Shown here: positions 46,751 to 49,225 of the stretch, piece by piece
How the letters are laid out: each line of letters begins with the position of its first letter
Numbering within the stretch: the first letter of the stretch is position 1
Assembly (NCBI RefSeq): GCF_002159975.1
Contig: NZ_NFJR01000002.1
Span: 186,001-250,000 of the forward strand
DNA: 64,000 nt
From: Barnesiella sp. An22
GTDB lineage: Bacteria > Bacteroidota > Bacteroidia > Bacteroidales > Barnesiellaceae
Reading direction: 5' to 3'
The notes under the pieces: model-generated
The model's database searches: none
Told to the model about the DNA's origin: nothing
Seen by the model: only the letters and a program-made list of their open reading frames with translations
Program-made: the position numbers and the translations under genes

Positions 46751-46782
46751 CAAAGATAGTGAAAGGCGAGCGCAGAGGCAAA
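46751..46782 (-). promoter_or_regulatory. Proximal argS promoter (full consensus)
   Basis: Minus strand: TTTG (46782-46779), 20-bp spacer, TATCTTTG (46758-46751). The transcript would start near 46744, only about 20 nt before the argS ATG. A palindrome (46785-46799) lies directly upstream of the -33 box. Confidence 0.8.
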
Positions 46783-46901
46783 TGGAAAACGAAGTTTTCG
46801 ACATTTGACAGTGCCGAGCCGCCTCCTTTCTTCTGGAAAGATAGTGAAAGACGAGCGCAGAGGCAAATGGAAAACGAAGTTTTCGACATTTGACGGTGCC
46901 G
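46752..46901. repeat. Two direct 65-bp repeats carrying the argS promoter
   Basis: Copies 46752-46816 and 46837-46901 are identical except for two G/A differences by eye and repeat with an 85-bp period. Each contains a -33/-7 pair reading toward argS and the palindrome GAAAACGAAGTTTTC (46785-46799 and 46870-46884). The distal copy ends -7 in TATCTTTC instead of TATCTTTG, because the repeat boundary falls there. The short segment between copies is unrelated. Confidence 0.95.
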
Positions 46902-46978: not shown

Positions 46979-47605
46979 TCAACAAAAGGCATTGATGAGG
47001 ATCGGTACGCTCACCTCGAGTACGATACCATGCAGAACGGCGATGGGTATGAGCTCTTCGCCTCGCGTGGTATTGCGCACAATCATGGGCAGGCACACAT
47101 CCATCGAGTTGATGCCGGCCACCGATATGGGCACCAGTCGTCCGCCCCAGCGGGCCAACGTAGGAGTGCCAAAGAGGGCAATCATTTCGCGTATGACGTT
47201 GGCAAGCAGAGCCACGGTAGCCAGTTCGGTAGCGCCCTGCACGCCGAGGGTTGCACTCTTGAGGTCGGCAATCAGCACCGACGAGAGCGAGTAGTATCCG
47301 AACCCGCTCCCCACAAGCAGGCAGTCGCTGAGGTTACGCCCGTGCAGCAGCAATACCCCTATGGCCGAGAAGAGCAGGGTGCCGGCGATGGTAAAGAGGG
47401 GCAGCAGCGACATGCGAGGATTGAGCGAGCGGACCAGCTGGCGCAAGTCGGTGGCACTGCCCAGACTGATGCCTACTTGCAGGATGAGCAGCGAGAGGAT
47501 AATCATAGGCAGGTCGTGCCCGTGCAGCCAGTCGGGTGCCTGGTTTGAAAGTCCCAGCGCAATACCGGCCACGAAACATCCCAGAATGAGCAGATTCTCT
47601 TTCAT
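46979..47605 (-). CDS. LysO-type exporter, large C-terminal part
   Basis: A 208-residue membrane protein that corresponds to the larger C-terminal portion of the lysine exporter LysO (YbjE). It has five or six helices, including PMIILSLLILQVGISLGSATDLRQLVRSLNP near 33-63, GSGFGYYSLSSVLIADLKSATLGVQGATELATVALLANVIRE near 98-140 and GRLVPISVAGINSMDVCLPMIVR near 153. Its start overlaps the stop of the small N-terminal partner by 4 nt (ATGA). The protein is therefore made as two chains that probably assemble. Export of lysine or a lysine analogue is inferred from family knowledge. Confidence 0.85.
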   Translation of the reverse strand: MKENLLILGCFVAGIALGLSNQAPDWLHGHDLPMIILSLLILQVGISLGSATDLRQLVRSLNPRMSLLPLFTIAGTLLFSAIGVLLLHGRNLSDCLLVGSGFGYYSLSSVLIADLKSATLGVQGATELATVALLANVIREMIALFGTPTLARWGGRLVPISVAGINSMDVCLPMIVRNTTRGEELIPIAVLHGIVLEVSVPILINAFC

Positions 47606-47880
47606 AGTTTACCTCCTTTCTTGAAGAAGATCCGTTGGGCAGCCCGGGCAGCCACGATGCTGCCGACTACGCCCAGGCAGGCAATGACCAGAGCTTGCCA
47701 GCCAAATCGGTACAGGTTGTCGATGAGGTCGCGGTTAGACCCTATCGAAATACCGAAAACAAACAACAGCAGGCATACGGTGGCCTGAATGCCCCATTTC
47801 GTAGCCTTTACGCAGGAGCGTCCCCGCAGGAGCATCCCTACGCCTATGCCTATGGCGAGTAAGATGAGAATGCGAAACAT
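47602..47880 (-). CDS. LysO-type exporter, small N-terminal part
   Basis: A 92-residue protein with three hydrophobic helices (MFRILILLAIGIGVGMLL; ATKWGIQATVCLLLFVFGISIGSN; ALVIACLGVVGSIVAARAAQRIF). It equals the N-terminal portion of single-chain LysO of enterobacteria. It overlaps its larger partner by 4 nt in a different frame, so the split is genuine unless both reading frames were joined by a recent frameshift. The frame is open up to 48054, but ATG 47880 starts at the hydrophobic N-terminus. It is preceded by a leader of about 300 nt rich in hairpins. Confidence 0.8.
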   Translation of the reverse strand: MFRILILLAIGIGVGMLLRGRSCVKATKWGIQATVCLLLFVFGISIGSNRDLIDNLYRFGWQALVIACLGVVGSIVAARAAQRIFFKKGGKL

Positions 47881-48400: not shown

Positions 48401-48441
48401 CAAAAAGGGCTGTACCGCGATTGGAAAACGGCACAGCCCTC
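48401..48441 (-). terminator. Terminator of the cysteine-rich gene
   Basis: AGGGCTGTGCCG and CGGTACAGCCCT (minus strand, one mismatch) with an 11-nt loop, followed by TTTTTGTC. The 48187-48400 stretch beyond it holds a second copy of TGTGCCGCGATTGG (48327-48340; compare 48411-48424) and nothing else recognisable. Confidence 0.85.
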
Positions 48442-48466: not shown

Positions 48467-48862
48467 TTATTTCTTGGCGTTCTCCTGTTTGCAGCAGGGC
48501 GTGTTGGCTTTTTTGCAGTTGGTTTTGCAGGGAGCTTGCTTGCCACAGTTCGCATTCTGTTTGCAACAGGGCGTTTTGCAGTTTGTGTTGCAGGGAGCCT
48601 GTTTGCCGCAGTTGGCATTCGACTGGCATTTTTTCTGGCAGTTGGCTTTGCACTCTTTGCCGGTGCAGTTGGTGCACTTGCACGCTTGGCAATTCCCTTT
48701 ACACTCTTTGCATTTGCAATCGGTGCATTTGCACTCTTTCTTATTGCATTCCTTTTTGCAGCACTCGGTTTTCGCTTTGTTGTCGGTTGTGTTTTGAGCA
48801 ACAGCCGGTAAAGCGATGATCGAAGCGGCGGCAATGCAGGCCATAATAAGTAATTTCTTCAT
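48467..48862 (-). CDS. Exported cysteine/lysine-rich, metallothionein-like protein
   Basis: 131 residues. Signal peptide 1-22 (MKKLLIMACIAAASIIALPAVA) with an AVA cleavage site. The mature 109 residues contain 25 cysteines (23%), many lysines and asparagines, and no aromatic residues or histidine. Residues 34-79 hold dense C-K-C, C-C and C-x2-C clusters (KCTDCKCKEC). Residues 82-102 and 103-126 are a tandem repeat (NANCGKQAPCxTNCK then PCCKQ). This composition suggests thiol-based metal binding in the periplasm or outside the cell, or a disulfide-rich secreted protein. I know no named family for it. It has a full-consensus promoter and its own terminator, so it is an independent, probably well expressed gene. 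Confidence 0.85.
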   Translation of the reverse strand: MKKLLIMACIAAASIIALPAVAQNTTDNKAKTECCKKECNKKECKCTDCKCKECKGNCQACKCTNCTGKECKANCQKKCQSNANCGKQAPCNTNCKTPCCKQNANCGKQAPCKTNCKKANTPCCKQENAKK

Positions 48863-48893
48863 AGGTCTTGTGTATTTTAGTGAGATTACGTTG

Positions 48894-48924
48894 CAAATAT
48901 AATACGAAGTCGTTGTGCCTCAAA
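48894..48924 (-). promoter_or_regulatory. Promoter of the cysteine-rich gene
   Basis: Minus strand TTTG (48924-48921), 19-bp spacer, TATATTTG (48901-48894): a perfect match to the Bacteroidota consensus, giving a leader of about 25 nt. Confidence 0.8.
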
Positions 48925-49043
48925 TACAACGACTCTTATTTTTTCAAAAAAGCAGGCACAAGGTTTGTAAAAGGTGTAAAATCGTACTGATTCTTATCTG
49001 TACCGTACGCTCTTTACGGACTCTTTCTTCTGGTGGTCTGCGC

Positions 49044-49225
49044 CTCGGTTTGCACCTCTTTAGCCCCGTTGGGACCCGAAGATAGGCTGCGACTCGGCAA
49101 AGCACAAATAAATTTGCTTTTGCTCTCGGCTTGCACCTCTTTGGCTCCGTTGGGACCCGAAGACAGGCTGCGCCTCGGCAAAGCACAAATAAATTTGTTT
49201 TTGCTCTCGGCTTGCACTATCTTTG
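49044..49225 (+). repeat. 81-bp tandem repeats upstream of the GHL10 gene
   Basis: Two near-identical 81-bp units (49044-49124 and 49125-49205) are followed by the start of a third that runs into the promoter. Each unit starts CTCGG, contains TTGCAC, CCGTTGGGACCCGAAGA, CTCGGCAAAGCACAAATAAA and TTTG, and carries the -33 element. Where the real promoter has CACTATCTTTG, the earlier units have CACCTCTTT(G/A), so their -7 is degenerate. Because 81 is divisible by three, open frames run through the repeats on both strands; I do not regard these as genes. The 48925-49043 stretch before the repeats shows nothing clear. Confidence 0.95.
49194..49225 (+). promoter_or_regulatory. Promoter of the GHL10 gene
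   Basis: TTTG (49194-49197), 20-bp spacer, TATCTTTG (49218-49225). It lies about 23 nt before the ATG at 49249 and so rules out the in-frame start at 49033. Confidence 0.8.

What the first reader, a model, noticed from the sequence alone, without database searches (positions are those of the whole stretch)
48467..48924. Secreted 25-cysteine, aromatic-free repeat protein resembling an exported metallothionein
The mature chain has 25 Cys in 109 residues, in C-C, C-x-C and C-x2-C clusters, with abundant Lys and Asn, no His and no aromatic residue. It ends with a tandem repeat (residues 82-102 and 103-126). Known metallothioneins are cytoplasmic; this one has a clear signal peptide, a perfect promoter and its own terminator. 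Metal or thiol buffering outside the cytoplasm is a reasonable inference but not shown, and disulfide-linked structural roles are possible.
Basis: partly seen in the sequence, partly recalled or inferred. Interest (0 to 1): 0.75.

Follow-up and report, generated by a model that had tools for sequence, protein, structure and literature searches.

The report
Exported cysteine-rich metallothionein-like small protein
This gut-type bacterium and all eight related species tested make a small exported protein that is about one quarter cysteine, has no water-repelling core, and comes from a genus with no detectable machinery for locking cysteines into disulfide bonds, so it probably acts outside the inner membrane as a flexible sponge for metals or oxidants, which is untested.

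Summary
The gene is on the minus strand, 48862-48467 (131 aa): signal peptide, invariant Gln at +1 (Bacteroidetes Q-rule), then 109 residues with 25 Cys and only 11 residue types (no V, I, L, M, F, W, Y, H or R). It is a real, selected gene: present in 9 of 9 genomes of its genus, same neighbours in most, pN/pS 0.05-0.58, conserved promoter and terminator. Cys is the best-conserved residue, yet its number varies (16-27 in the eight uninterrupted orthologues, odd and even), which does not fit a fixed disulfide fold. DsbA, DsbB and VKOR are all undetected in the nine genomes. AlphaFold gives no fold (pLDDT 36).

"Known metallothioneins are cytoplasmic" is too strong (PmtA is reported on the cell surface; Csp1 is exported).

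Similar but shorter exported K/C-rich proteins occur patchily across the order, several beside tcdA/lolD-type genes; homology there is weak to moderate. No Pfam or NCBIfam model matches above its cut-off. Best reading: an exported disordered thiol sponge for soft metals or redox buffering. Metal binding is not shown.

The parts
48467..48862 (-). Protein-coding gene, 131 aa, exported Cys/Lys-rich protein
   Evidence: ORF; orthologues in 9/9 genus genomes; pN/pS 0.05-0.58
48797..48862 (-). Signal peptide, residues 1-22 (MKKLLIMACIAAASIIALPAVA), followed by invariant Gln23 (Q-rule)
   Evidence: Alignments A1 and A2; Q-rule PMC5837995
48470..48796 (-). Mature chain, 109 aa, 25 Cys, 11 residue types, calculated 11.9 kDa, pI 9.1, no predicted fold
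48701..48727 (-). Conserved core CTDCKCKxC (residues 46-54; C46, C49, C54 invariant in the genus)
48557..48619 (-). Repeat copy 1, residues 82-102 NANCGKQAPCNTNCKTPCCKQ
48485..48556 (-). Repeat copy 2, residues 103-126 NANCGKQAPCKTNCKKANTPCCKQ
48894..48924 (-). Bacteroides-type promoter: TTTG, 19 nt, TATATTTG
   Evidence: Sequence; conserved -7 box in 9/9
48934..48951 (-). Conserved upstream block TTTTTTGAAAAAATAAGA, UP-element-like in position and sequence
   Evidence: AAAAATAAGA in 9/9 orthologues; usually once per genome in this arrangement; single hit in the window
48402..48440 (-). Intrinsic terminator hairpin followed by U run
   Evidence: Fold -30 kcal/mol, z -5.7; a hairpin of different sequence in the other orthologues, read by eye

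Best explanation
The gene makes an exported, intrinsically disordered, thiol-rich polypeptide. It is carried through Sec, cut by signal peptidase I at A|Q and probably capped as pyroglutamate, and stays in the periplasm or goes beyond it. Because the genus has no detectable DsbA, DsbB or VKOR and the group is probably anaerobic, most of its 16-27 cysteines are probably kept as free thiols. It then works like a metallothionein or sponge: closely spaced thiols (C-x2-C, C-x3-C) flanked by lysines wrap soft metal ions (Zn, Cu(I), Cd and the like), buffering them, and secondarily oxidants, before they reach the cytoplasm. Capacity is adjusted by gain and loss of short Cys-containing repeats. Shown by sequence: gene, export signal, conservation, Cys selection, missing canonical Dsb enzymes, lack of a hydrophobic core. 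Inferred: high expression, reduced state, metal binding, function.
For: 9/9 genus genomes carry it; recognisable shared neighbours in all nine loci, on both sides in most. pN/pS 0.05-0.58 over pairs. Cys aligned identity 86% versus 62% for Lys and 57% or less for the others, while Cys share stays at 20-27% as mature length runs from 74 to 109. Cys number 16, 17, 18, 19, 20, 21, 25, 27 in the eight uninterrupted orthologues, so parity is not kept. CxxC, CxxxC and CK enriched over shuffles. No DsbA, DsbB or VKOR in 9/9 genomes, with positive control genomes ringing; obligate anaerobes tend to exclude Cys from exported proteins (PMC12453122), so this one is an exception kept by selection. No predicted fold. 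An exported protein with a Pfam Metal_resist domain in another genome of the order carries a similar KGKSECC segment after its signal peptide (L085).
Against: No metal-binding, expression or localisation data. The gene sits alone, with no metal transporter or metal regulator beside it. The upstream block looks like a strong-promoter element and gives no sign of a metal operator. CC and CxC, the metallothionein hallmark, are depleted. The L085 link is weak (E = 7e-4; its 20-residue N-terminus is matched by 30 of 500 shuffles), and the Spy-like part of L014 is below all cut-offs. Other thiol oxidants not covered by the three Pfam families may exist.
Confidence: 0.5

Rival explanations
1. A disulfide-crosslinked structural or adhesive envelope protein: the Cys-rich chain is oxidised (on air exposure or by an unlisted oxidase) into a cross-linked network or surface layer, as for other Cys-rich coat proteins such as C. 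difficile CdeC.
For: Exported location; Cys-rich repeats; a Cys-rich disulfide-linked spore protein is known in an anaerobe (PMC12453122); thiols would oxidise on air exposure.
Against: No DsbA, DsbB or VKOR in the genus; Cys number varies and is odd as often as even; no aromatic or hydrophobic residues for packing or adhesion; small size.
Confidence: 0.18
2. A periplasmic thiol/redox buffer: a sacrificial thiol pool that scavenges oxygen-derived oxidants, hypochlorous acid or electrophiles during oxygen exposure in the gut, with metal binding incidental.
For: Very high thiol density in an exported protein of a probable anaerobe; the metallothionein PmtA protects against oxidants (PMC11237414); neighbouring Lys lowers thiol pKa (own knowledge).
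Against: No redox-related neighbour; conserved C-x2-C and C-x3-C spacing is more than a plain thiol pool would need.
Confidence: 0.2
3. A secreted bioactive peptide (bacteriocin or host-directed) or a loosely constrained low-complexity protein whose composition is a by-product of repeat slippage.
For: Repeats, length variation from 74 to 109, and an in-frame TAA after 63 codons in G001.
Against: Strong purifying selection; conserved in every species of the genus with no immunity gene or peptidase beside it; no phage, plasmid or viral-contig copies.
Confidence: 0.1

Closest known systems
Metallothioneins (bacterial SmtA/BmtA/PmtA/MymT and eukaryotic MTs)
   Same: Small, 20-27% Cys, Lys-rich, almost no aromatic or His, apo form without a fold, conserved Cys against variable background.
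   Different: Sec signal peptide with Q-rule; C-x2-C and C-x3-C rather than C-x-C and C-C; no hydrophobic residues at all in the window protein's mature chain; no Pfam or PDB match.
Csp1-type exported copper storage proteins
   Same: Exported (there by Tat) and Cys-rich; C-x3-C spacing (own knowledge for Csp).
   Different: Csp folds as a rigid four-helix bundle before binding copper (PMC7558416); here there is no hydrophobic core or predicted fold and the route is Sec.
SilE/PcoE periplasmic metal sponges
   Same: Small exported metal-sponge logic (PMC7558416).
   Different: SilE/PcoE bind through Met/His (own knowledge); this protein has none in the mature chain.
Other small exported K/C-rich proteins of the order (e.g. 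L027, L028, L073, L076, L081)
   Same: Signal peptide, Q at +1, K-x-K-x-E-C-C-like start, Cys-rich tail; several beside tcdA- or lolD-type genes.
   Different: 65-90 aa with 4-11 Cys; sequence homology beyond composition is supported for some only.

Membership tests
Metallothionein (superfamily by composition) | Small, Cys 15-35%, few or no aromatic residues or His | tested here: met
   Mature 8.0-11.9 kDa, 20-27% Cys, 0-2 aromatics; 0-1 His except 4 in G003
Metallothionein (superfamily by composition) | C-x-C / C-C clustering | tested here: not met
   Summed over eight orthologues CC 16 vs 34 expected, CxC 15 vs 27; CxxC and CxxxC are enriched instead
Metallothionein (superfamily by composition) | Metal-thiolate clusters | not testable with these tools
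   Needs purified protein
Bacterial metallothionein family (Pfam) or metallothioneins of known structure | Profile or sequence match | tested here: not met
   No Pfam family up to E = 10; PDB search gives only a weak hit to a Tat protein, E 0.045
Csp copper storage protein | Folded four-helix bundle with Cys-lined core | tested here: not met
   No hydrophobic V, I, L, M, F, W or Y in the mature chain; AlphaFold mean pLDDT 36, one helix at 69-81 without confidence; no Pfam hit
Exported Bacteroidetes SPI substrate | Sec signal peptide, Gln at +1 | tested here: met
   A22-Q23 invariant in the genus and in wider relatives
Disulfide-bonded exported protein | Dsb/VKOR pathway present; conserved even Cys number | tested here: not met
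   No DsbA, DsbB or VKOR in 9/9 genomes; Cys number odd or even

The most novel reading that the evidence does not exclude
An uncatalogued family of exported, disordered, metallothionein-like thiol sponges is spread through the order, kept in anaerobes that lack the known disulfide-forming enzymes, and gives them a reduced metal and oxidant buffer outside the inner membrane; this genus carries an expanded form with up to 27 cysteines.
Probability: 0.35. Interest if true: 0.75.

Novelty: new variant of a known kind. Interest (0 to 1): 0.52.

Why it matters
Obligate anaerobes tend to keep cysteine out of exported proteins. A small exported protein that is a quarter cysteine, conserved in a whole genus with no detectable Dsb pathway, is an exception with a testable cause. 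If it binds metals it would extend metallothionein-like buffering to the cell envelope of gut-type bacteria, where zinc, copper and calprotectin shape competition. No Pfam or NCBIfam model covers it.

Tried and rejected
Mobile-element origin: no match in plasmids, phages or viral contigs. Regulon by shared upstream block: patterns in the nine genomes gave this gene plus a few other sites; one, in G000, G008 and G001, lies (in G000, where it was read) before a 65-aa small lipoprotein, others before unrelated genes or none, so no metal regulon was found. Operon partner: none; neighbours are argS, lysO, GHL10, an AAA ATPase and folK. Rfam: none. A 98% identical copy on a contig filed as Candidatus Gastranaerophilales (L013) carries the same neighbours and is taken as a misbinned contig. 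Phylum-wide hits outside the order (L053-L059) were judged signal-peptide or low-complexity matches; L058 and L054 are possible exceptions. Several order-wide hits (L074, L075, L078) do not exceed shuffles of their own mature sequence and are counted as look-alikes. Exported versus other Cys content within the window was compared, but with four other crudely predicted exported proteins it says nothing. PubMed Central searches found no description of this protein.

Full report
What is there. The frame is on the minus strand, 48862-48467, 131 aa. Residues 1-22 form a Sec signal peptide ending AVA; Gln23 follows, in line with the Bacteroidetes Q-rule, under which signal peptidase I exposes a Gln that is cyclised (PMC5837995). 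The mature chain has 109 residues: 25 Cys, 25 Lys, 15 Asn, 10 Thr, 9 Ala, 8 Gln, 6 Glu, 4 Gly, 4 Pro, 2 Asp, 1 Ser, and nothing else.

Is it real. Nine of nine genomes of the genus carry it. The neighbours argS, lysO and GHL10 flank it in most; in G006 only argS and lysO were found near it, and G002 is cut by its contig end. Pairwise pN/pS runs from 0.05 to 0.58. The TATATTTG box and an AAAAATAAGA block upstream of it are found in all nine; in the window the box is preceded by TTTG at 19 nt. The block sits where an UP element would sit and has TTTT-spacer-AAAA form; that is an inference from E. coli knowledge. A strong terminator hairpin follows the gene (z = -5.7), and the orthologues have hairpins of other sequences in the same place (by eye). 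In G001 the frame has a TAA after codon 63, with the Cys-rich frame continuing behind it; the 63-codon part still holds 12 Cys.

What selection keeps. At aligned positions of the mature part Cys is identical in 86% of comparisons, Lys 62%, Asn 31%, Ser 5% (the aligner favours Cys matches, so this is somewhat inflated). Mature length runs from 74 to 109 and Cys from 16 to 27 in the eight uninterrupted orthologues, with odd and even totals, yet Cys share stays at 20-27%. Against shuffles of the same composition, CxxC (33 vs 21) and CxxxC (31 vs 17) are enriched, CC (16 vs 34) and CxC (15 vs 27) are depleted, and Cys is followed by Lys far more often than expected (59 vs 33, 0 of 2000 shuffles) (orthologues are not independent). 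So thiol density and a C-x2/3-C rhythm are kept, but no fixed Cys framework and not the classical metallothionein rhythm.

Redox setting. Pfam DsbA, DsbB and VKOR give no match in any of the nine genomes, while control genomes ring. Published work links even Cys numbers to DsbA with DsbB or VKOR and says obligate anaerobes tend to exclude Cys from exported proteins (PMC12453122). Free thiols are therefore the likelier state. AlphaFold with the eight orthologues finds no fold (mean pLDDT 36), as expected for a chain without a hydrophobic core; with such a shallow alignment this is weak evidence on its own.

Wider relatives. A profile of the genus set finds short exported K/C-rich proteins in other families of the order; with an enlarged profile 36 of 393 genomes match at E <= 0.01, of which roughly half are small exported K/C-rich proteins by inspection. 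Many begin, after the Q, with K-x-K-x-E-C-C or similar. In L065/L070, L066/L068/L076 and L073 the neighbour is a TcdA-like ThiF-family gene with, where visible, a LolD-like ATPase; in L069 the LolD-like gene is next door (NCBIfam scores below the equivalog cut-offs). Shuffling the mature parts shows that similarity exceeds composition for L014, L027 and L073 (0-1 of 500), moderately for L026, L029, L031 and L036 (6-13 of 500), and not for L074, L075 and L078. I treat order-wide homology as plausible for part of the set only. Two longer proteins join a similar Cys start to a stress-protein-like body: L085 passes the Pfam Metal_resist cut-off (36.6 vs 29.2 bits); L014 resembles Spy/CpxP only below cut-offs. 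These are leads toward envelope metal stress, not proof.

What it most likely does. An exported disordered thiol sponge for soft metals (0.5), with oxidant scavenging as a close second (0.2). Whether it stays in the periplasm or leaves the cell cannot be told. It works like a metallothionein by composition, but one defining feature (C-x-C/C-C clustering) was tested and not met and another (metal-thiolate clusters) could not be tested, so I do not file it as a member.

Literature. PmtA of P. aeruginosa has been reported on the cell surface and protects against oxidants (PMC11237414), and Csp1-type proteins are exported Cys-rich copper stores (PMC7558416); so the idea of an extracytoplasmic Cys-rich metal protein is not new, but a Sec-exported, core-less one of this kind was not found in the papers searched.

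Limits. E-values from whole-genome searches are per genome. Absence of the Dsb families rests on Pfam models.

Noticed in passing
window 49044-49205: Tandem pair of an 81-nt intergenic unit (93% identical) between this gene and the GHL10 gene, containing CACAAATAAATTTG; no other copy in the window.
   Followed up: partly
window 46752-46901: Two 65-nt direct repeats (97% identical, spacing 85) in the argS-lysO intergenic region.
   Followed up: no
window 46979-47880: LysO lysine exporter split into two adjacent ORFs that both match Pfam Lys_export; both parts were also found in several of the related genomes.
   Followed up: no
L040 1597-1794 (G000 contig C3): 65-aa Ala/Val/Glu-rich small lipoprotein preceded by the same AAAAATAAGATT block and a TANNTTTG box; the same site is found in G008 and G001. 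May share a strong-promoter element with the finding.
   Followed up: partly
L014 (2433 onward) and L085 (1501-2004): Exported proteins with a Cys-containing ECC-type N-terminus joined to a Spy/CpxP-like (L014, below cut-off) or Metal_resist (L085) body.
   Followed up: partly
L013 (CALVEV010000052.1), 2338-2730: Contig filed as Candidatus Gastranaerophilales carries a 98% identical gene with the same neighbours; probably misbinned.
   Followed up: partly
L005 (G001), after codon 63: In-frame TAA inside the orthologue, with the Cys-rich frame continuing behind it; a truncated protein or a sequence error.
   Followed up: no
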